Assembly: GCF_014879935.1 (NCBI RefSeq)
Contig: NZ_JACSRD010000209.1
Coordinates: 1-48,895, forward strand
DNA: 48,895 nt
Source of the DNA: Prosthecobacter sp.
Lineage (GTDB): Bacteria; Verrucomicrobiota; Verrucomicrobiia; Verrucomicrobiales; Verrucomicrobiaceae
Direction of reading: 5' to 3'
Positions within the stretch are counted from its first letter, which is position 1. Each line of letters begins with the position of its first letter. Both the position numbers and the translations under genes were made by a program. The notes under the pieces are model-generated. The model made no database searches and was not told the DNA's origin. It saw only the letters and a program-made list of their open reading frames with translations. This document shows positions 818-9,751 of this stretch, piece after piece.

Positions 818-2710
818 TTAAACAGTAATTCTGGCGCGGCCCTGCAGGTCCGCCAGCCATTCATGAAGGACAAGCTGGCGAAAAGCCGGTTCATGGCAGA
901 AGCGCCTAAATTCTGCCGAGAACGCCGTCGATACGATGTTTCCACTGAGGTTGAGGGAGGGAATTGCTTTCAGCATGCGGTTTGTATCGACCTTGAAGCG
1001 CTTCGCTAGTTGCTCGGCCTTGCCGCTGTCTTGAGTGATCAGTGCGTTCGCGTCTGATGCCTGAACTGCGGCCCCCAAGCCGAGAATCGGACAAATCGTT
1101 AGCAATTGATGAGCCAGGGATGCGACGCTTTCACAGCGGCATGCCTTAGCGAGTTTCACGACCTGATCTGAAGTCAGAAGCCTGGGTGAATCGAAGTGAC
1201 ACTCGCGAATTGCCTCAAGCCAATAGCTGTCATCTTTGAGAGAACTGACTGGCAAAGAGCTTTCGCCTCGATCCGCAACTGAGGAGCCGAGCCAAACAGG
1301 CAGTGCATCTGCTAAATGCTGCCTGAAGAACGAAGAGAATGGCCCCTGAGCATCTTTGGACAGAATCGGGGCGCGCCACCATTGCAGCCAGGCGGCCAGC
1401 TTATTCGAAGAAGGCGCTTGATCATCGCAATCCATCACAGATGTCCACTTGACAGGATGAAGCCAGGACCCCACTCGATGTCCTCGGTATGAAATAGCCA
1501 GTCCCAGGAGGTCATTCCAATTTAAATTCGGAATAATGAACGACTGCTGATCACAACTCTGGTCTCTCAAGGAGATGGCAACGACCTTTGGAAGAGAACC
1601 CCGGCACCATGCCCAGAGCTGATGCCCTTCATCAAATTCGTAAGGGCCAGCCAATGCAATCAGGCAACCACCTGAGGTAGGCTCCACTGCTTCCATGATT
1701 CCTTGATCCGTGCATTCATCTGTCACGGCCAGAAGCTCCCGATCTCCATATTTTAGAGAAACCCTGCCGCCAAGACCCGCGAATGAGCGGGGGTGTGGAA
1801 ATTTAAAAGCGAGCCTGTCCTTGTACCGTTGCTTGATTGGCTTGGTTTCAACGATCATGCGATGGCTTTCAGACAGCACCCCTTTGGCATTTGGTTCCCA
1901 GCCGTTTGGAGTCTTGACCGCAATGGTGATTTCGGCGTTTTCCAGGCGGCGACTCCGGCAGGGTGATTTGCTATCAGGTGCCTCATACTTGCTATCACCT
2001 GCCAGGGACCATTCTTTGAAGATACAACCAAGCCATGCGACGGGCTCCAAAGTTGACTCGCGCCACACATTCACGCCCTTTTTTGACAACTTAGCCCCAA
2101 CCGAAATCCCCTCTACCATGGCTTCCAGCGTCACGGGAATCTCAACAAAGTCAGCGGGATTTTGCCAACGACGCATTTCGGATGATTCTCCAGCTGGCAC
2201 CCTCACACGAACTTCATTTGCTTTCCATTTATCTGAAGCCACCACGCCGAAAAGAGCCGACTTATCATGAGGGCTGATGCATGTCTTCCATTTCAGTTCG
2301 AAACTCTTCGGTGGCTTCGTAGCCCCGATGGGCAGTTCAGCGGGGTCTGCCAGTGTCTCAATCAATGGGCCATTCCATAATTCGCCATCACCTAGCTGCG
2401 CTGGGAGCAACACCTCCAGCAACCGTGGCCGCCAGTCAGGGCGAAGCCAAGGATTGCCATTGATCTCCTCAATCACACGCTCTCGGGTCATTTTCCCAAC
2501 GATTGCAAGCCAGAGCATGTGGAAACTGCCTGACTTCCCGGTTGATGTAAGCAGGTCAGTCAATTCCGCCGGGCGTTTTTTTTGTCGTTCTCCATTCCGA
2601 TATATGCCCCTTGAGATCATGCTCACAGATTCCTGCATGAGTTCGGAAGAACTTCGGCCAGTCTCGTCTTTCGAGAGCATCTCCACCAGTGCGTAGTCGA
2701 AAAGCTTCAC
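818..2710 (-). CDS. Unknown protein, large C-terminal part (possibly frameshifted from upstream ORF)
   Basis: I do not recognise this 630-residue protein. It has no signal peptide and no membrane segment, and is rich in Trp and charged residues, so it is probably cytoplasmic. The GTG start is poor, and the reading frame remains open upstream only in overlap with the preceding ORF. The overlap is about 155 nt, which is far too long for a normal operon junction. Joining the two frames at a GCTTTTC run near 2700 gives one smooth protein of about 765 residues (…KATCEAF-DYALVEML…). It therefore is best read as the main part of one gene broken by a one-base insertion, real or a sequencing error. 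It lies immediately upstream of a defence-type helicase, and the pair may form a two-gene system. Confidence 0.7.
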   Translation of the reverse strand: MKLFDYALVEMLSKDETGRSSSELMQESVSMISRGIYRNGERQKKRPAELTDLLTSTGKSGSFHMLWLAIVGKMTRERVIEEINGNPWLRPDWRPRLLEVLLPAQLGDGELWNGPLIETLADPAELPIGATKPPKSFELKWKTCISPHDKSALFGVVASDKWKANEVRVRVPAGESSEMRRWQNPADFVEIPVTLEAMVEGISVGAKLSKKGVNVWRESTLEPVAWLGCIFKEWSLAGDSKYEAPDSKSPCRSRRLENAEITIAVKTPNGWEPNAKGVLSESHRMIVETKPIKQRYKDRLAFKFPHPRSFAGLGGRVSLKYGDRELLAVTDECTDQGIMEAVEPTSGGCLIALAGPYEFDEGHQLWAWCRGSLPKVVAISLRDQSCDQQSFIIPNLNWNDLLGLAISYRGHRVGSWLHPVKWTSVMDCDDQAPSSNKLAAWLQWWRAPILSKDAQGPFSSFFRQHLADALPVWLGSSVADRGESSLPVSSLKDDSYWLEAIRECHFDSPRLLTSDQVVKLAKACRCESVASLAHQLLTICPILGLGAAVQASDANALITQDSGKAEQLAKRFKVDTNRMLKAIPSLNLSGNIVSTAFSAEFRRFCHEPAFRQLVLHEWLADLQGRARITV

Positions 2711-3113
2711 ATGTGGCCTTCATGAGCAGCCGGAAATGCGTTGTGAACTTCCCTTCATCGTCAAACATCCACCAGGGGATTTCGCTGCCAAATACGGGTG
2801 ATTCTCGAATGAGCGTCTCTGGTTGAGATAGGTCTGTTCCCCGCAGCAAAATGACCTGTCTGATGAGCAAAGCCAAGCCCGGCAAGACCTGCTCGGGCTT
2901 CAATCCCTCTTGGAAACCTTTCCGCCTCAATGAGGCAGTCTCTTTGAAGAGAAGGCATAGACCATCAAGCGCTTCGGGGCTAATGGCTTCAATGATCCTG
3001 GTCGCAGCGTCTTCAAAGGAATCCAGTGGCGGATTGATCTCCCCCAAAGATGCTCGTTTGCCAGCGCCCGTTAGACGCTTTAGCTCGGAGCACAGACTGT
3101 AGAGATTCACCAT
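2556..3113 (-). CDS. Unknown protein, N-terminal part of the split gene
   Basis: This ORF of 185 codons starts with ATG (MVNLYSLCSELKRL). Its first ~135 residues look like a normal helical, soluble protein. The last ~50 codons, which overlap the 630-codon ORF, read like an out-of-frame tail. Removing one T from the four-T run in GCTTTTC would put it in frame with the downstream ORF. No family was recognised. A possible -10 box (TATAGC) lies about 20 bp before the ATG, but no convincing -35 was found. The 93-bp gap to the neighbouring rtcB stop separates this transcription unit from the RNA-repair genes. Confidence 0.6.
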   Translation of the reverse strand: MVNLYSLCSELKRLTGAGKRASLGEINPPLDSFEDAATRIIEAISPEALDGLCLLFKETASLRRKGFQEGLKPEQVLPGLALLIRQVILLRGTDLSQPETLIRESPVFGSEIPWWMFDDEGKFTTHFRLLMKATCEAFRLRTGGDALERRDWPKFFRTHAGICEHDLKGHISEWRTTKKTPGGID

Positions 3114-3206: not shown

Positions 3207-4697
3207 TCAATCATCCGCCTCCGCCGCGTCTTTGATGACGAAGCGGGCCTTCAGTTTGCAGACCTGCTGGGCGAGGCCGGCGGCTTCGACGCTGTGGAGG
3301 ACTTCTTTGAAGTCTTTGTAGGCGTTCGGGGCTTCGTCGATGGGGTATTGGCGGGCGTTGTAGAGGATGTCGTGGGTTTCGAAGTCGGCGTTGACCTCCG
3401 CTTGATTCAGAGTGCGGGCGGCGGCTTTGCGGCCCATGCAGCGACCGGCTCCGTGATTGACGCTGTAGCAGCTTTTCACAGCATCGGGCTTCGCGACCAT
3501 GACGACGGAGCCGTCTCGCGGATTTCCGGGGAGCAGGATGGGGTGGCCGGTTTCGGCGAAGGGCGTGTCTTTGAGCGCGTGGTGGCCGCCGGGGAAGGCA
3601 CGCGTGGCGCCTTTGCGGTGAACCCACGCGAGCTGGTCATCGACGACTTCCTGACGTGCGATGTTGTGGCTGATGAAATACACGAGCTGGCCGGTCGTCC
3701 CTGGCAGCACTTCTTGGAAGGCCTCCAGCACGAGCGCATTGATGAGCAGGTGGTTCACGGTGGCGAAGTTCGCCCCGAGCGCCATGTCATCGAGATACGC
3801 GTCCGCCTCGGGTGTTCCGAGCGGGGCATAGACGAGCTGTTTGTCATCGGCCGGGAAAGGCAGGCCCCAGGTGCGGAAGAAGCCTTCCAGCGACTTGAAC
3901 TGACGCTGCGCGAGGATGTTCCCGAACCCGCGCGATCCGCAGTGGCTGAGGAAGGCGACATGATTGTCCCGCAGGCCGAAGACCTCGGCGGTGCGGCGCA
4001 TCGCGGGGTCATCGGCGAGCTGCACGACCTCGCACTCACCGAAGTGGTTTCCACCTCCGTAGGAGCCGAGCTGGGTCATCTTGTTTTCAAAGCCGGGGAA
4101 GGCGTTGAAGGCGCGCATTTGGTCGAGGCGCTCATGGAGGGTGGAGACGTTTCCGTCATGACCGAGGTGGGTGCTGTCTTCGCAACGCTGCGCCCACTCA
4201 GGCGGGATGCCGAGCGCGTCGCACACGCTGCGGCTCGCGCCTTCGGTGCACACCTGCACGCCGAGGTCGGCGGACACGCGGCGGGATTTTTTCGCCTCGC
4301 GCTGACCACGACCTGCGCCAGTCGGCGTGCGGGCCACGATGGCGTCGATGAGGCGACGACGGATGGTTTTATCGATGATCTCATCGGCGGGGATGTCCAT
4401 CTGGAGCAGGGACATGGAGCACTTGATGTCCACGCCGACCGGCCCCGGATAAATGTGCGTCGGCGAGACCATCACGCAGCCGACCGGTGCACCGTAACCG
4501 CTATGCGCGTCGGGATTGAGCACGAGATCGGTCACGCCCGGCGCGGAACGCGAATTGAGCGCCTGCTCGATGCAGGATGGGTCAAACCCGGCACGGATCG
4601 CCTCCGTGCCGATGACGGTGATGGGTTTTCCGGCGTTGTTGCGGGCTGGTAGGATGGCTTCGGCTTCGCCGGTAATGTGGAAGGGGGAGGAGGACAT
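3207..4697 (-). CDS. rtcB: RNA-splicing ligase RtcB
   Basis: RtcB joins RNA ends carrying 2',3'-cyclic phosphate or 3'-phosphate to 5'-OH ends, using GTP and Mn2+ through a covalent histidine-GMP. The 496-residue product keeps the family motifs in order: GVDIKC (metal ligands D90 and C93), GGGNHF (N217, H218), SHCGSRGFG (H252), SHN (H344), VHRKGATRA (about 359) and NHGAGR with the predicted guanylylated H415. Sequence IKC in place of the more usual IGC marks a long, divergent subfamily. The frame is open 32 codons further upstream, but that extension would run into the divergent antitoxin gene; the chosen ATG gives a normal N-terminus. It lies downstream of slipin on the same strand, with a toxin-antitoxin pair on the other strand between them. 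No sigma54 box is visible in the 69-bp divergent gap, so it may depend on readthrough from the slipin promoter or on an unseen promoter. Confidence 0.95.
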   Translation of the reverse strand: MSSSPFHITGEAEAILPARNNAGKPITVIGTEAIRAGFDPSCIEQALNSRSAPGVTDLVLNPDAHSGYGAPVGCVMVSPTHIYPGPVGVDIKCSMSLLQMDIPADEIIDKTIRRRLIDAIVARTPTGAGRGQREAKKSRRVSADLGVQVCTEGASRSVCDALGIPPEWAQRCEDSTHLGHDGNVSTLHERLDQMRAFNAFPGFENKMTQLGSYGGGNHFGECEVVQLADDPAMRRTAEVFGLRDNHVAFLSHCGSRGFGNILAQRQFKSLEGFFRTWGLPFPADDKQLVYAPLGTPEADAYLDDMALGANFATVNHLLINALVLEAFQEVLPGTTGQLVYFISHNIARQEVVDDQLAWVHRKGATRAFPGGHHALKDTPFAETGHPILLPGNPRDGSVVMVAKPDAVKSCYSVNHGAGRCMGRKAAARTLNQAEVNADFETHDILYNARQYPIDEAPNAYKDFKEVLHSVEAAGLAQQVCKLKARFVIKDAAEADD

Positions 4698-4766: not shown

Positions 4767-5039
4767 ATGACGATCACCGTGAATGAGTTTCAAAGCCTCG
4801 GCGCTTCATTGCTGGAGCGGGTGCGTCGTTTTCATGAGGAGGTGGAGATTTTGGATGCTGGTGTGGTGGTGGCTCGCTTGGTTCCCGAAGAGCAAAGTCA
4901 GCCTGCGAAACCCTGGCATATTCTGCGTGGGGCCATGGGCATTCACGGTGATCTCACGGAGCCTGTGATGACCGAAGAGGAAGTGGAAGCAGGATTGGCC
5001 GCCGAGGCGAAAAACGTGATCGGGAGCCATGCTTCTTGA
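4767..5039 (+). CDS. Phd/YefM-type antitoxin
   Basis: This 90-residue protein begins MTITVNEFQSLGASLLERV, resembling the Phd/YefM N-terminal fold, and includes the strand ILDAGVVVARLVPEE that is usual in antitoxins paired with PIN toxins. The C-terminal half is acidic and probably binds and blocks the toxin. Antitoxins of this type also repress their own promoter, here the 69-bp gap shared divergently with rtcB. The stop codon overlaps the toxin start by 11 nt, so the pair is translationally coupled. The module lies antisense between two genes of the RNA-repair system. Confidence 0.85.
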   Translation: MTITVNEFQSLGASLLERVRRFHEEVEILDAGVVVARLVPEEQSQPAKPWHILRGAMGIHGDLTEPVMTEEEVEAGLAAEAKNVIGSHAS

Positions 5040-5418
5040 TACGCACATTTTGATCTGGTGGCTGAATCGCACCAGCGATCTGAGTGAATCGGCTCTGCGC
5101 TTTCTCGATGCGAAAAATCCGCGTCCGATCATTGCTGATATCAGCTTGTGGGAGGTGGCGACGCTGGTGAAAAAGGGCCGAATCACTTTGAACATTGAAT
5201 TGCGGGCTTGGTTTGATGTCGTGACGCAGCATGTCGAGGTCATTCCGATCACACCGGGCATCGCGGCACGAGTTGCTGACTTACCAGAGGAATTCCATGG
5301 TGATCCTGCGGACAGGCTCATCGTGGCAACCGCTTTGGAAATGGGCGTGCCATTGGTGACACGGGACAAGAAGATTCGGGATTCAGGTTTGGTGCAGATC
5401 ATGGAGCTGCCGGGTTGA
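5029..5418 (+). CDS. vapC: VapC-type PIN-domain ribonuclease toxin
   Basis: A 129-residue PIN domain with the full acidic site: D4 (LLDTHILIWW), E42 (SLWEVATL), D92 and D95 (DPADRLIVATA) and D113 (LVTRDKKI). VapC toxins are Mg2+-dependent endoribonucleases that usually cut tRNA or rRNA and leave 5'-phosphate and 3'-OH ends. Such ends are not RtcB substrates, so the RNA-repair neighbours are not an obvious antidote. Length and motif spacing are normal, with no sign of decay. It ends 7 bp from the stop of the convergent slipin gene, so transcripts from the two strands should collide or run antisense. Confidence 0.92.
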   Translation: MLLDTHILIWWLNRTSDLSESALRFLDAKNPRPIIADISLWEVATLVKKGRITLNIELRAWFDVVTQHVEVIPITPGIAARVADLPEEFHGDPADRLIVATALEMGVPLVTRDKKIRDSGLVQIMELPG

Positions 5419-5425
5419 GGTTGTT

Positions 5426-6154
5426 TCACACCTTCGTCACGGCTTTGAGCCGCTCAGAATCCGTCAGCCCCAGCACCAGCGTGTTTCCCACACCGGTTCC
5501 GACTTCCTGGAGGGTCTGCAGGTAGCGGAGTTGCAGAAGCTCAGGGTTGTCGCGCATGAGCTTGGCGGCGTTGGCGAGGGTGCGGAGCGCGGCGGTTTCA
5601 GCGCGGGCCTTTTCGAGGCCTGCCTGGGCTTCCTGACGCTGCTGGAGGGCGGACATGAAGCTGCGCTTCAGGTCGGCAGGCAGCATGACATCGCGGATGT
5701 CGATGCGGTCCACTTTGAGGCCGAGAGACTGGGCGCGGTCGGCGATGAGATCGAGGAGTTTAGTTCCGTGTCCTGCCTTCTGTTCCAGGAAGAATTCCGC
5801 GTTCTCCGCAGCCACGATCTGACGCAGAGCAAGCTGCACTTCGCTGTAGAGCACCGCTGCGGCATCTTGAGTGGCGCGATGCATCGTGAGAGCATCGGCG
5901 ACACGGAAGGTGGCGAGCGCGGATACCTTCAGCACGACCTGATCGGCGGTGAGGAGTTCCTGTCCTTGCACGAGGAGCATCTGCTCGCGGTTGTCGATGC
6001 GCTTCACCTCATGGCCAGCGCTCCACAGGCGATGCTTGCCGGCCGTGAGAGCACGGATGTAGCGGCCATGCTGGAAGAGCAGCGCGGTTTCGTGGTCCTG
6101 GATCACAAAGCTGAATCCGGCGGCAGGACGAAAGGTGGAGATGAAGGTGTTCAT
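5426..6154 (-). CDS. Slipin (SPFH/band 7 protein) of RNA-repair type
   Basis: The 242-residue protein is an SPFH/band 7 domain from about residue 15 to 180 (FVIQDHETALLFQHGRYI near the start; ALRQIVAAENAEFFLEQK and RAQSLGLKVDRIDIRDVMLP later) followed by a helical, probable coiled-coil region (SALQQRQEAQAGLEKARAET, about 172-191). Slipins are known genomic partners of RtcB and RtcR; their job there is not settled. Most slipins have an N-terminal membrane hairpin; none is obvious here, so this one may be soluble or only peripherally bound. The frame is open 38 codons further upstream, but the ATG chosen removes a Arg/Pro-rich tail that would overlap the structured leader. A strong sigma54 promoter 290 bp upstream should drive it. 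Confidence 0.9.
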   Translation of the reverse strand: MNTFISTFRPAAGFSFVIQDHETALLFQHGRYIRALTAGKHRLWSAGHEVKRIDNREQMLLVQGQELLTADQVVLKVSALATFRVADALTMHRATQDAAAVLYSEVQLALRQIVAAENAEFFLEQKAGHGTKLLDLIADRAQSLGLKVDRIDIRDVMLPADLKRSFMSALQQRQEAQAGLEKARAETAALRTLANAAKLMRDNPELLQLRYLQTLQEVGTGVGNTLVLGLTDSERLKAVTKV

Positions 6155-6436
6155 GATGATTGGATGCTTAAAAATGTCCTTCCCGGATGGCTGGCGGCCC
6201 GCTGACGGGAGTTGAATGGCCCGCACGCGGCGGACATCGCCACGCTGCCAGACAGCTCGCAGAGTCATGAGGCCGTTGCGTCCATCTGCCGGAGCAGACT
6301 TTCACCCCGGCCATCCGGGAAGGTTTATGTCGATGGGGATTCGCACCCCGAGGTTGCCCTTTACTAGGTGTCTCCTCACCGATGGGCAGCTTCCTTGGGC
6401 GTATCGCTTCAGTCAGTGCATGGAGTCGGAGGACAG
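6155..6436 (-). ncRNA. Structured leader RNA with tRNA-like T-arm (predicted)
   Basis: No coding potential was found here between the predicted transcription start and the slipin ATG, but several stems can be seen in the minus-strand RNA. First, TGCCC pairs with GGGCA around an inner stem GGTG/CACC. Next comes GGGG-TGCGAAT-CCCC, which has the stem and 7-base loop of a tRNA T-arm. Further on are CCCGG-ATGG-CCGGG, TCTGC-TCCG-GCAGA (a UNCG tetraloop), and an 8-bp stem GCGTGGCG-ATGTC-CGCCGCGT. A 14-bp segment near 6310-6323 is also perfectly complementary to 6178-6191. RNA-repair operons in other bacteria can encode tRNA-like RNAs such as the Y RNAs (established knowledge); that this leader is one is inference. 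A complete acceptor stem was not found. Confidence 0.55.
6178..6323. repeat. 14-bp inverted repeat spanning the slipin leader
   Basis: The minus-strand RNA contains CCTTCCCGGATGGC (6323 to 6310) and its exact complement GCCATCCGGGAAGG (6191 to 6178), separated by 118 nt. The match stops exactly after 14 bases on both sides. The first arm can instead fold locally into CCCGG-ATGG-CCGGG, so the two pairings exclude each other. The second arm ends 23 nt before the slipin ATG. The arrangement could close a long RNA domain or act as a conformational switch; only the complementarity is seen, the role is inferred. Confidence 0.75.
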
Positions 6437-6446
6437 AAGGATGTAT

Positions 6447-6462
6447 TGCCAGACGCGTGCCA
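6447..6462 (-). promoter_or_regulatory. Sigma54 (RpoN) promoter of the slipin/RNA-repair transcript
   Basis: On the minus strand the sequence TGGCAC-GCGTC-TGGCA matches the sigma54 consensus (TGGCAC-N5-TTGCW) at all but one position. The invariant GG of the -24 element and the GC of the -12 element are exactly 12 bp apart, with C6448 at -12; transcription should start near 6436. The sigma54 activator RtcR is encoded 1.7 kb away, which is the expected regulator. The -24 element is one arm of a palindrome (CGTGCCA, 5-bp spacer, TGGCACG; 6456-6474), but the plus-strand copy has no -12 partner. Enhancer sites for RtcR should lie between 6480 and 6690; I could not identify them by eye. Confidence 0.85.
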
Positions 6463-6697
6463 AAACTTGGCACGGAGGGGTCGGATGACGCTGGAAGCCC
6501 TGTAAATACAGGGGAAGAAAATTTTTGGAGCGGTTTGGGGGGAAGGCGGCCTGCCGCATCGAACGACGAACAATGCTAGCGTATAGGCTATTGATTTATC
6601 CCAGGAGAAGGCTACGAACTCCGCGTTCTGTTCTCCCGTCATGAAACGCGACCAGAAATGATCTGGCAGGCCGATGAGGAGACATTAGAATCACGAT

Positions 6698-6934
6698 ATG
6701 ATCCTCGAAACCATACCCGCTATCCGACAGCTCACGGCGGAGCAGAAAATCCGGCTCTGCTGGGAGCTTGCGGATGATGTCTCAAAAGAGATGGAGGTTC
6801 GGCCTGAAGTGCTGCGCGTGCTCGATGAGCGGCTCGACGCCTATGATGCCGATCCTGCGGCGGTAAAGTCGACCAACGAGGTCACGGCGGGCATTCTCGA
6901 ACTCAAACGCCGCATCGTGGGCGCTGCTGCGTGA
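6698..6934 (+). CDS. Addiction-module antitoxin (CHP02574-like)
   Basis: A 78-residue, acidic, helical protein with the short N-terminal pattern typical of RelE/ParE-associated addiction-module components (RQLTAEQKIRLCWELADDV) and a C-terminal helix rich in Arg and Lys (ILELKRRIVG). It is followed by a RelE/ParE-type toxin after only 4 bp. It presumably neutralises that toxin by direct binding. Its promoter must lie in the ~220 bp shared with the divergent sigma54 promoter of the slipin transcript, so binding of an autoregulator here could also influence the RNA-repair unit. A GAGGAG stretch is about 16 bp before the ATG, too far to be a good ribosome site. Confidence 0.75.
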   Translation: MILETIPAIRQLTAEQKIRLCWELADDVSKEMEVRPEVLRVLDERLDAYDADPAAVKSTNEVTAGILELKRRIVGAAA

Positions 6935-6938
6935 TCGC

Positions 6939-7244
6939 ATGAAGGAGGTCGTCTGGACTTTGGCCGCGGAGGCGGACGTGCAGGAAATTTATGAGCGGCT
7001 GGAACTGCGTGAAGAAGGATCCGGCGATGCCTTTTATGCCGATGTGCTTCATGTGACCCGGTTGTTGGCGCAGTTTCCCGAGTTGGGAACATCCTTGTAC
7101 CATCGGCGGCTTCGCAGAGTCCTGCTGCACAACCGCCACTACGGCCTTTTCTATGTCTCCGAGGCTCGTGGCGTGGTTTTGCATGCTCTGTTCGATCTTC
7201 GACAGGACCCGGCCATGATCGAGAGGAGGCTGCGCGATGTTTAA
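6939..7244 (+). CDS. RelE/ParE-superfamily toxin
   Basis: A 101-residue protein with the compact RelE/ParE layout: N-terminal helices (EADVQEIYERLELREEG), a loop with FPELGTSLYHRRLRRVLL, and the closing strands HYGLFYVSEARGVVLHALFDLRQDP (shown in parts: HYGLFYV, VVLHALFDLRQDP). ParE members poison gyrase; RelE members cut ribosome-bound mRNA. The RelE catalytic residues cannot be assigned with confidence, so the target is open. If it is a RelE-type nuclease, its products would carry 2',3'-cyclic phosphate and 5'-OH, which RtcB could reseal. The gene is intact. Confidence 0.85.
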   Translation: MKEVVWTLAAEADVQEIYERLELREEGSGDAFYADVLHVTRLLAQFPELGTSLYHRRLRRVLLHNRHYGLFYVSEARGVVLHALFDLRQDPAMIERRLRDV

Positions 7245-8170: not shown

Positions 8171-9751
8171 ATGAAACCCATCACCACTTTCGGCTTCCTC
8201 GGCTCCACGCTGGACCGCGCTCAGGGCGCGGATCGGTGGTCGAAATGGCGGCCGACGGTGGCGATGTGCCAGCAGGAGGACTTGCTCATTTCGCGGCTGG
8301 AACTGCTCGTGGAGCCGAAGTTTGCCGATCTGGCGAAAAGCGTGGTCGCGGACATCGCGAAGGTTTCGCCGGAGACGGAGGTGGTGGTGCATGAGTTCGC
8401 GCTGAAGGACCCGTGGGACTTTCAGGAGGTGTATGAGCGGCTTTACGACTTCGTGCGCGGCTATGACTTCCAGCCGGAGAAGGAGGACTACCTCATCCAC
8501 CTGACCACCGGCACGCATGTGGCGCAGATTTGCTGGTTCCTGCTCAACGAGGCGAACTTCATCCCCGCGCGTTTGCTGCAAACCTCGCCCTCACGCGAGG
8601 GCGGACGCGATGCGAAGGCCTGCGGGCGCTACGAGATCATCGACATCGATCTCTCGAAGTATGACCGGCTCTCCACACGCTTCGCGCAGGAGCAGGAGCG
8701 CACGCTCGACTTCTTGAAAAGCGGCATCGCCACGAAGAGCAAGGGCTTCAACAAGCTCATCGAGCAGATCGAACTCGTCGCCGTGAACTCCAAAGCGCCT
8801 ATCCTCATCATGGGACCGACCGGCGCGGGCAAATCCATGCTCGCAGGCCGCATCTACGACCTGCGACGCTCGCGGGTCGGATTGAGCGGTCGATTTGTCG
8901 AAGTGAACTGCGCCACGCTGCGCGGTGATCAGGCGATGTCGGCATTGTTTGGCCACAAACGCGGTTCCTTCACCGGGGCGCAGTCGGATCGGCCGGGATT
9001 GCTCAAAGAAGCCGACAAAGGCCTCATCTTTCTCGATGAGATCGGCGAACTCGGTCTCGACGAGCAGGCGATGCTGTTGCGGGCACTCGAAGACAAAACC
9101 TTCCTGCCGCTCGGCAGCGACAAAGCCGTGCAGAGCGACTTTCAGCTCATCGCCGGCACGAATCGCGATCTGCGGGCGCAAGTCGCCGCGGGCAAATTCC
9201 GCGATGATTTGCTCGCCCGCATCAATCTGTGGACCTTCACGCTGCCGAGCCTCGCCGAGCGTCGCGAAGACATCGCCGCGAACCTCGATTTCGAGCTGGA
9301 ACGCTTCGCGAAGACACATCGCCGCCAGGTGCGCATGAACAAAGAAGCCCGCGAGGCCTTCCTCAAATTCGCCAAAGGCCCGGAAGCGAAATGGAGCGCG
9401 AATTTCCGCGACTTGAATGCCGCCGTGACCCGCATGGCCACGCTGGCTCCGAAAGGGCGAATCACGGTGGAGTGCGTGGAGAATGAGATCGGGCGGTTGA
9501 GGGAAGGATGGCGGTCAGAGGTGAGAAGTGAGATGTCAGAGGTGGTGTCGGAGGAGCTTGATCCGTTTGACCGTGTGCAGTTGGAGTTTGTGATCAAGAC
9601 CTGCCGAGAGTCGAAGACGCTGTCGGATGCGGGACGGAGGCTTTTTGCCGTCTCGCGGGCCAAGCGGTCGAAGATCAATGATGCGGACCGGCTGAAGAAG
9701 TATCTGAAACGCTTTGATCTGACGTGGGAGAAGCTGCAAAAGGCGGAATGA
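8171..9751 (+). CDS. rtcR: RtcR, sigma54-dependent activator of RNA repair
   Basis: A 526-residue activator. Residues 1-165 match the RtcR-type CARF sensor domain (FGFLGSTLD at the start; YLIHLTTGTHVAQICWFLL about 107-125). The AAA+ domain follows with Walker A GPTGAGKS (215-222), the sigma54-contact loop GSFTGA (265-270) and Walker B LIFLDE (285-290). The C-terminal region should contain the HTH domain. In Enterobacteria RtcR senses damaged tRNA ends and switches on the RNA-repair operon (established). Here the target is most likely the sigma54 promoter upstream of slipin. The ATG giving MKPITTFGFLG was preferred over one 7 codons upstream, because that matches family starts. Its TGA overlaps the next ATG by 4 nt. 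Confidence 0.95.
   Translation: MKPITTFGFLGSTLDRAQGADRWSKWRPTVAMCQQEDLLISRLELLVEPKFADLAKSVVADIAKVSPETEVVVHEFALKDPWDFQEVYERLYDFVRGYDFQPEKEDYLIHLTTGTHVAQICWFLLNEANFIPARLLQTSPSREGGRDAKACGRYEIIDIDLSKYDRLSTRFAQEQERTLDFLKSGIATKSKGFNKLIEQIELVAVNSKAPILIMGPTGAGKSMLAGRIYDLRRSRVGLSGRFVEVNCATLRGDQAMSALFGHKRGSFTGAQSDRPGLLKEADKGLIFLDEIGELGLDEQAMLLRALEDKTFLPLGSDKAVQSDFQLIAGTNRDLRAQVAAGKFRDDLLARINLWTFTLPSLAERREDIAANLDFELERFAKTHRRQVRMNKEAREAFLKFAKGPEAKWSANFRDLNAAVTRMATLAPKGRITVECVENEIGRLREGWRSEVRSEMSEVVSEELDPFDRVQLEFVIKTCRESKTLSDAGRRLFAVSRAKRSKINDADRLKKYLKRFDLTWEKLQKAE

What the first reader, a model, noticed from the sequence alone, without database searches (positions are those of the whole stretch)
6155..6470. 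Candidate tRNA-like leader RNA behind the sigma54 promoter of an RNA-repair operon
The 282 nt between the predicted start and the slipin ATG have no coding sense but many stems, including GGGG-TGCGAAT-CCCC with the shape of a tRNA T-arm and a second two-part arm just upstream (TGCCC/GGGCA around GGTG/CACC). RNA-repair operons elsewhere encode tRNA-like RNAs such as Y RNAs, and RtcR senses damaged tRNA. Here the RNA is physically joined to a slipin mRNA. This could be an undescribed RNA class: a decoy, sensor or substrate for RtcB.
Basis: partly seen in the sequence, partly recalled or inferred. Interest (0 to 1): 0.82.

Follow-up and report, generated by a model that had tools for sequence, protein, structure and literature searches.

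The report
tRNA-mimicking leader RNA of slipin genes
The stretch in front of this slipin gene encodes a conserved folded RNA, and related RNAs that imitate the T-arm (and often the anticodon arm) of a tRNA sit in front of slipin genes in several bacterial phyla, apparently an undescribed RNA class that ties a membrane-scaffold protein family to tRNA biology.

Summary
The 282-nt leader (minus strand, 6155-6436) behind a sigma-54 site of an RtcR/RtcB locus is a conserved structured RNA: 13 leaders, the window's included, keep a long stem P1 enclosing a junction (94% of pair cells paired, 32 of 54 pairs with two-sided changes). The window's T-arm-like hairpin is a degenerate copy; 4 of 14 family leaders have a canonical T-loop, 3 have none.

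Slipin loci from other phyla carry the same layout: 5' hairpin, arm, T-arm, long P1, slipin. A T-loop motif lies at -100..-320 in 62 of 78 loci. A model of 23 actinobacterial leaders found 25 further slipin leaders and no off-target at E<=0.025 in 82 loci; in genomes drawn regardless of slipin, 11 of 12 new hits sit just upstream of slipin. Of 18 seven-nt loops before the T-arm, 15 have T at the U33 place; one leader has D-, anticodon- and T-arm-like stretches together. No Rfam match in the 11 loci scanned; no description found in the library searched. Not a YrlA Y RNA. Function is inferred.

The parts
6447..6462 (-). sigma-54-type promoter TGGCACGCGTCTGGCA (-24/-12)
   Evidence: sequence; the site is conserved in all 7 aligned leaders and found before the slipin of L063, L064, L076, L077
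6371..6433 (-). 5' domain D1 of the leader RNA (CTCC/GGAG and ATGCAG/CTGCGCAT-type stems with an inner GGCGATAGGCC-type hairpin; the window copy deviates)
   Evidence: RNAalifold on A2; the counterpart in 23 actinobacterial leaders has 99.4% paired cells in its outer helix, 4 of 7 pairs with two-sided change
6335..6349 (-). T-arm-derived hairpin GGGG-TGCGAAT-CCCC (degenerate T-loop; can also fold with a GCGA tetraloop)
   Evidence: canonical TTCGATC/TTCGACT loops in G030, G180, G188, G056; absent in G018, G033, G034
6307..6323 (-). P1 5' strand CCTTCCCGGATGGCCGG
   Evidence: inverted repeat I1; 9 of 15 P1 pairs with two-sided change in 13 leaders
6278..6305 (-). P2 hairpin inside P1 (GTCTGC...GCAGAT)
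   Evidence: helices 2 and 3: 94.9 and 100% of cells paired
6195..6275 (-). P3-P5 arm with the conserved internal loop CTCTGCGAG / CTCCCG
   Evidence: a like loop (CUUGCGGG/CCCCCGCC) in folds of actinobacterial, Phycisphaerae and Anaeromyxobacter leaders
6178..6194 (-). P1 3' strand CCAGCCATCCGGGAAGG
5429..6154 (-). slipin / SPFH (Band 7) protein, 242 aa
   Evidence: Pfam PF01145 E 1.5e-23; AlphaFold mean pLDDT 79.5, nearest solved fold human stomatin 9z7u E 3.2e-17; no N-terminal hydrophobic helix in its near relatives L139-L142 (the window protein itself was not run)
3207..4697 (-). RtcB RNA ligase
   Evidence: PF01139 E 1.8e-100
8177..9748 (+). RtcR, divergent sigma-54 activator with CARF-type sensor
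   Evidence: NF038308 793 bits; PF06956 E 9.3e-80; PADLOC RtcR CARF_AAA_HTH

Best explanation
Shown by sequence: the leader is a conserved structured RNA in front of slipin, and slipin genes of several phyla have leaders built as [5' hairpin D1]-[arm]-[tRNA T-arm]-[long helix P1 that in 42 of 49 loci starts within 10 nt of the T-arm and encloses a junction]-[slipin]. Inferred: the T-arm next to P1, with an anticodon-loop-like arm before it in many clades, presents tRNA-handling proteins or tRNA-cleaving toxins with a tRNA-shaped target tied to the slipin message. The most likely use is as a tRNA-damage sentinel or bait: made when tRNAs are being cut (in the window through RtcR, whose relative answers to tRNA fragments), it engages or is cut by the tRNA-acting factor and thereby sets slipin output and/or guides the slipin scaffold to the damage. 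The window's copy has kept P1 and its junction but is losing the tRNA-like arms.
For: Conservation and covariation. T-motif at -100..-320 in 62 of 78 slipin loci; stem of 4 or more pairs in 46 of 70 such hits against 36 of 775 elsewhere in the loci; 2.67 against 0.041 per kb. R2 model: 48 of 48 matches at E<=0.025 in 82 loci lie upstream of slipin, 25 not in the training set. Of 12 new hits in 249 genomes drawn evenly, 11 have slipin in the same direction, its match beginning 228-284 nt after the element start. P1 beats the locus's own shuffle mean in 45 of 49 loci. 7-nt loops with T at the U33 place: 15 of 18, against 146 of 736 for random hairpins in the same loci. L150 (Verrucomicrobiales): D-arm-, anticodon-arm- and T-arm-like stretches in tRNA order, not called by ARAGORN, followed by a P1-type helix. 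Loops CTCAGGA, CTGCGGA, CCACGGA and CCGAGGA have GG before the last base, where VapC11 cuts tRNA anticodon loops (PMC6459853, abstract and passages). Operon activation by damaged tRNA in Salmonella (PMC7790460, start of abstract and passages). Slipin alr0740, rtcB and a tRNA operon are all under TrcR in Anabaena (PMC10272220, passages).
Against: No transcript, binding or cleavage data. The window's own leader scores 10.3 bits, E 0.87, with R2 (rank 3 in the window): its kinship to the actinobacterial RNAs rests on intermediates (G180: R1 97.8 bits, R2 33.3 bits at E 3.1e-4; G030: R1 125.4 bits, R2 26.5 bits at E 0.0076) and on shared layout. In A9 the arm before the T-arm is only 60% paired; 24 of 79 stretches have no hairpin next to the T-arm, and the near kin of the window have none or a weak 4-bp one. 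The anticodon-type loops are spread over different anticodons. No tRNase was tested. Three relatives lost the T-arm yet keep the rest.
Confidence: 0.4

Rival explanations
1. The RNA is the non-coding partner of slipin: excised or used from the leader, it is bound by the SPFH assembly (as Y RNA by Ro60, or vault RNA in the vault).
For: RNA and slipin are constant partners whereas RtcR/RtcB are not. In RtcR loci of relatives, YrlA copies (with a TROVE hit in some) and slipin+leader alternate, and G059 holds both. The slipin model also matches vault MVP (E 4.2e-7, rank 49), which has an SPFH domain in an RNA-containing particle (PMC13100048, passages). P1 ends 18-76 nt before the chosen start codon and overlaps no Shine-Dalgarno site in 30 leaders.
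Against: I recall no SPFH protein shown to bind RNA (not searched). Stomatin, prohibitin, HflK/C and flotillin structures match better than MVP. No processing site identified.
Confidence: 0.25
2. An ordinary cis-regulatory 5' leader (ligand- or protein-sensing) that controls slipin translation or read-through.
For: 5' of and co-directional with slipin, close to the start codon; SD pairing probability median 0.61 in 30 leaders, without a control.
Against: P1 overlaps the SD in 0 of 30 leaders; no terminator-like site in the window region 6100-6700; does not explain the tRNA-like arms.
Confidence: 0.25
3. A divergent bacterial Y RNA (YrlA family) whose Ro60 has been lost.
For: Same kind of locus, T-arm followed by an acceptor-like helix, tRNA mimicry.
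Against: No YrlA match at the leaders scanned (E<=10, E<=1) while YrlA copies in the locus of G059 score 45-67 bits; no D-arm seen after P1; no TROVE hit in the window genome; G059 has both kinds.
Confidence: 0.05
4. The T-arm is a leftover of a tRNA gene, such as an attachment-site duplication.
For: T-arm and 3' acceptor end are what integrating elements copy (recalled); tRNA genes lie near some leaders.
Against: Similar spacing to slipin in several phyla, D1 and P1 conserved with it, compensatory stem changes; no ARAGORN tRNA overlaps the window leader or an R2 match in the loci scanned.
Confidence: 0.03

Closest known systems
YrlA bacterial Y RNA (Rfam RF02553)
   Same: tRNA-like RNA with T-arm next to an acceptor-like helix; found in RtcR/RtcB loci of relatives
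   Different: Order T-arm, acceptor-like hairpin, D-arm (model shown); the leader RNA has D1, no D-arm seen after P1, a P1 junction, precedes slipin, and has no RF02553 match where scanned
tmRNA / permuted tmRNA
   Same: T-arm on an acceptor-like helix (recalled for tmRNA)
   Different: No ARAGORN or Rfam tmRNA call at the leaders scanned
rsr-yrlBA-rtcBA RNA-repair operon under RtcR
   Same: RtcR and sigma-54 site, RtcB, tRNA-like RNA in the same unit
   Different: In the window, slipin and its leader stand where relatives have YrlA copies
Vault ribonucleoprotein (MVP with SPFH domain, TEP1, vault RNA)
   Same: SPFH-type protein in an RNA-containing particle (PMC13100048, passages)
   Different: Analogy only; RNA binding by slipin untested

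Membership tests
YrlA / bacterial Y RNA | Match to RF02553 | tested here: not met
   No match in the window leader or in the leaders of L063, L064, L076, L077, L067, while three YrlA copies elsewhere in L077 matched
YrlA / bacterial Y RNA | D-arm directly after the acceptor-like hairpin | tested here: not met
   Sequence after P1 read by eye; no D-arm seen
YrlA / bacterial Y RNA | Ro60 (TROVE) protein in the genome | tested here: not met
   0 PF05731 hits at E<=0.001 in G000 (97% complete)
tRNA or tmRNA gene | Recognised by ARAGORN | tested here: not met
   0 genes in the window and in 24 related loci
Known Rfam family (4227 models) | A credible match at the leader | tested here: not met
   Window and ten other loci scanned: none at the leaders beyond weak chance-level rows
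Slipin leader RNA (family proposed here) | D1 hairpin, T-arm, P1 with junction loop, slipin downstream | tested here: inconclusive
   Window: P1, junction and slipin met; D1 present; T-arm degenerate; R2 score not significant
RtcR-controlled RNA-repair operon | RtcR, RtcB and sigma-54 site | tested here: met
RtcR-controlled RNA-repair operon | Activation by tRNA fragments | not testable with these tools
   needs an experiment

The most novel reading that the evidence does not exclude
A phylum-spanning ribonucleoprotein system: an SPFH-cage protein encoded behind its own tRNA-mimicking RNA, whose anticodon-like arm (Leu CAG, Ile GAU, Glu UUC, Lys UUU, Val CAC, Cys GCA types, by my reading of the loops) baits tRNA-cleaving toxins or recruits damaged-tRNA handling to a vault-like slipin cage, taking the place of Ro60-Y RNA in RNA-repair loci.
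Probability: 0.2. Interest if true: 0.95.

Novelty: categorically new. Interest (0 to 1): 0.85.

Why it matters
The functions of bacterial slipins and other SPFH proteins are mostly unsettled. A constant RNA partner that imitates tRNA gives a direct handle: pull down the RNA, cut it with tRNases, delete its arms. It would also add a second kind of tRNA-mimic RNA to RtcR/RtcB repair loci beside Y RNAs, and a structured RNA class that reaches several phyla yet has no match in Rfam 15 where scanned.

Tried and rejected
Known Rfam families, tRNA, tmRNA, YrlA: no match at the leaders scanned. First alignment A1 had mixed strands and was discarded. MAFFT alignments A3 to A5 misplaced the P1 3' strand in three sequences, so model R1 was built from four sequences and nine more joined through cmsearch; A7 held three antisense matches and was not used for counting. 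A11 is fitted to the model's structure, so its counts lean towards it. T-stem pairing in A9 is biased because those loci were picked with a pattern that required pairing; one search repeats the test without that requirement. R2 in 357 Verrucomicrobiota genomes gave 2 weak hits (E 0.003, 0.009) with no slipin found near them: taken as chance; the divergent window-type copies were missed. One of the 12 new actinobacterial hits (L244, E 0.003) has no slipin; the next gene looked like a glycoside hydrolase by eye; in L240 only 89 residues of slipin matched. R2 in 396 genomes of the Nonomuraea phylum hit 2, one of them the training genome, so the unit is patchy (strict filters, few candidates scored per genome). 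P1 did not beat its shuffles in L219, L209, L160 and L213. Six of 23 slipin genomes had no R2 match, and the weak one in G742 (E 0.036) is not at the L158 leader. The 79 stretches were picked by pattern and a few (L175, L185, L211) are probably not T-arms. Masking of the SD by P1: not found. Papers not held: PMC4201824, and a DOI recalled for an RNA-repair review.

Full report
Locus. The window lies in a Verrucomicrobiaceae-type genome: contigs of the same lengths as those of G024 and G015, in its genus, are recorded as Prosthecobacter sp. and Verrucomicrobiaceae bacterium. RtcR (8177-9748, +) is divergent from slipin (5429-6154, -) and RtcB (3207-4697, -). A sigma-54 site lies at 6462-6447 (-) and the leader follows.

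The RNA is real. A DNA search of 56 genomes (the window's included) found the leader in 6 others at E<=4.5e-10, at 69-96% identity; the sigma-54 site is conserved with it. A covariance model of the P1-enclosed core (R1, four sequences) hit 11 of 386 order genomes at E<=0.01, all in the window's family. A protein search found the slipin at E<=1e-25 in 16 of the 68 genomes searched in that family; all 11 R1 genomes are among them. Of the 14 slipins with at least 54% identity, 13 have an R1 match in front; the exception is G056. For 13 of those 14, RtcR lies on the stretch fetched; the G143 contig ends without it. On the 13 leaders, 94.0% of cells pair (82.0% in shuffles, at most 47.8% when slid), 32 of 54 pairs show changes on both sides (shuffled mean 14.1), and the covariation score is 0.418 against 0.195 (the alignment is fitted to the model).

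The T-arm. Of these 14 leaders, 4 have a canonical loop (G030 TTCGATC; G180, G188, G056 TTCGACT), 5 have the window's TGCGA(A/T)T type (G000, G015, G024, G213, G143), 2 have GNRA-like caps (G059, G149) and 3 have none (G018, G033, G034). In G188 and G056 the T-stem is followed at once by GCAGCGAG, which can pair with CTCGCTGC near the end of the leader: a T-arm/acceptor-like stack in which the acceptor-like helix is closed by the junction domain. In the window an 11-nt linker separates the two.

Beyond the family. Slipin relatives were fetched from GTDB (111 found, the best 80 kept). The loop motif TTC[GA]AN[TC] lies at -100..-320 of the slipin match in 62 of 78 loci with enough sequence; 46 of 70 such hits have a stem of 4 or more pairs, against 36 of 775 hits elsewhere in the same loci, which include true tRNAs. 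Stems vary with compensation: GAGG/CCTC, GGGG/CCCC, AGGG/CCCT, CGGG/CCCG, TGGG/CCCA, CAGG/CCTG, CTGG/CCAG, GTGG/CCAC, GCGG/CCGC, GCAG/CTGC. A model of D1, arm and T-arm from 23 actinobacterial leaders (A9, R2) rests on a D1 outer helix 99.4% paired, a T-helix 87.8% paired (biased choice) and an arm only 60% paired; overall covariation 0.300 against 0.143 shuffled. R2 gave 48 matches at E<=0.025 in 82 loci (the 80 plus L219 and L220), all upstream of slipin on its strand, 25 outside the training set; the first off-target is at E 0.12. They include Phycisphaerae (L152, L159), Chloroflexi (L155), Obscuribacterales (L154, L156), Anaeromyxobacter (L158), Alphaproteobacteria (L160, L213), Chthoniobacter (L173) and Verrucomicrobiaceae-type loci (L148, L144). 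Of 24 slipin genomes asked for, 23 were held: 17 have exactly one match at E<=0.05, 6 none; by coordinates 16 of the 17 are the slipin leader, the weak one in G742 is not. In 249 genomes drawn evenly from the order of a Nocardia genome, 13 matched; leaving out the training genome, 11 of 12 have slipin directly downstream; L244 lacks it. A TANNNT box lies 18-27 nt before the model start in 28 of 31 actinobacterial leaders (no control run). Two IMG/VR contig stretches, identical in the part printed, carry slipin behind such a leader.

P1 and core. The best helix between the first 25 nt after the T-arm and the region before slipin scores 18.6 on average against 10.8 in shuffles, better than the locus's own shuffle mean in 45 of 49 loci; it starts within 10 nt of the T-arm in 42 and has 10-22 unbroken pairs in 38 of 49. 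Single-sequence folds show an internal loop (CUUGCGGG / CCCCCGCC type) like the window's CUCUGCGAG / CUCCCG; this likeness is judged by eye. P1 overlaps the chosen Shine-Dalgarno site in 0 of 30 leaders.

Anticodon-like arm. Among 79 stretches with a T-arm-like hit of at least 3 pairs, 55 have a hairpin next to it; 18 of these have 7-nt loops, 15 with T at loop position 2. Random anchors in the same loci give a hairpin in 31.7%, a 7-nt loop in 11.6% of those, T at position 2 in 19.8% of those. Seven of the 18 share the loop CTCAGGA in related species, so distinct loops are the fairer count: 8 of 11, P 2e-4. L150 is the clearest case: GGTAGCTCAGTTGGTAGAGC, then a stem with loop CTGATAA, then a T-arm, in tRNA order, no ARAGORN call, and a long helix after the T-arm (RNAfold of that piece alone does not give the cloverleaf, the arms are read by eye). 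L151 folds with a 5-bp, 7-nt-loop arm (CTCGCAA) and a T-arm. Both lie further upstream (-353, -418) than the -100..-320 window. Naming anticodons from these loops is my reading. VapC11 cuts anticodon loops after GG (PMC6459853, abstract and passages seen).

Link to RNA repair. In G017, G057 and G058 (no slipin) YrlA hits lie between RtcB and RtcR; a TROVE hit was found in G017 only, below the cut-off. G059 has slipin with leader, then an Rsr-like protein (NF041674 E 1.5e-27, below that model's cut-off; TROVE E 5.5e-5), three YrlA copies and RtcB. [quoted passage not shown] aeruginosa (PMC13086221, one passage). None of the passages seen mentions an RNA in front of slipin.

Novelty. No Rfam 15 match at the leaders of the 11 loci scanned. 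Library searches of slipin with RtcR, structured RNA, tRNA-like, RtcB and riboswitch, and a five-term search, returned no description. Subscription papers, including the Y RNA survey cited in PMC7790460, could not be read.

Limits. Kinship of the window's RNA to the actinobacterial ones rests on intermediates and layout, since R2 does not score the window leader significantly. Everything about function is inference.

Noticed in passing
window 4767-5418 (+): A Phd-like/PIN (VapBC-type) pair sits antisense between slipin and rtcB (the Phd match is below its cut-off); some relatives have no such insert.
   Followed up: partly
window 6939-7241 (+): ParE-type toxin gene between the leader promoter and RtcR (PF05016); a similar gene lies beside RtcR in G058 (L075).
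   Followed up: no
window 818-3113 (-): Two ORFs (630 and 185 aa) downstream of rtcB: the longer has no NCBIfam or PADLOC match (not scanned with Pfam), the shorter none in Pfam, NCBIfam or PADLOC; a relative (L142) has RtcA after RtcB.
   Followed up: partly
L077 5122-5667 (-): Three tandem YrlA-like Y RNAs below the Rfam threshold (66.8, 63.8, 45.5 bits), in one locus with slipin, an Rsr-like protein and RtcB.
   Followed up: partly
upstream of the RNA in Nocardia-type loci such as L200, L216: Shared GGAAAA...TACCGTT-like promoter sequence, perhaps an alternative sigma factor.
   Followed up: no
L070 3851-5364: RtcR of G024 is matched in two overlapping pieces: possible frameshift.
   Followed up: no
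L163, L165 (Bacillus): T-arm-like GCGGG-TTCRACT-CCC at about -200 of slipin suggests the RNA may also occur in Bacillaceae; R2 gave no match there.
   Followed up: no
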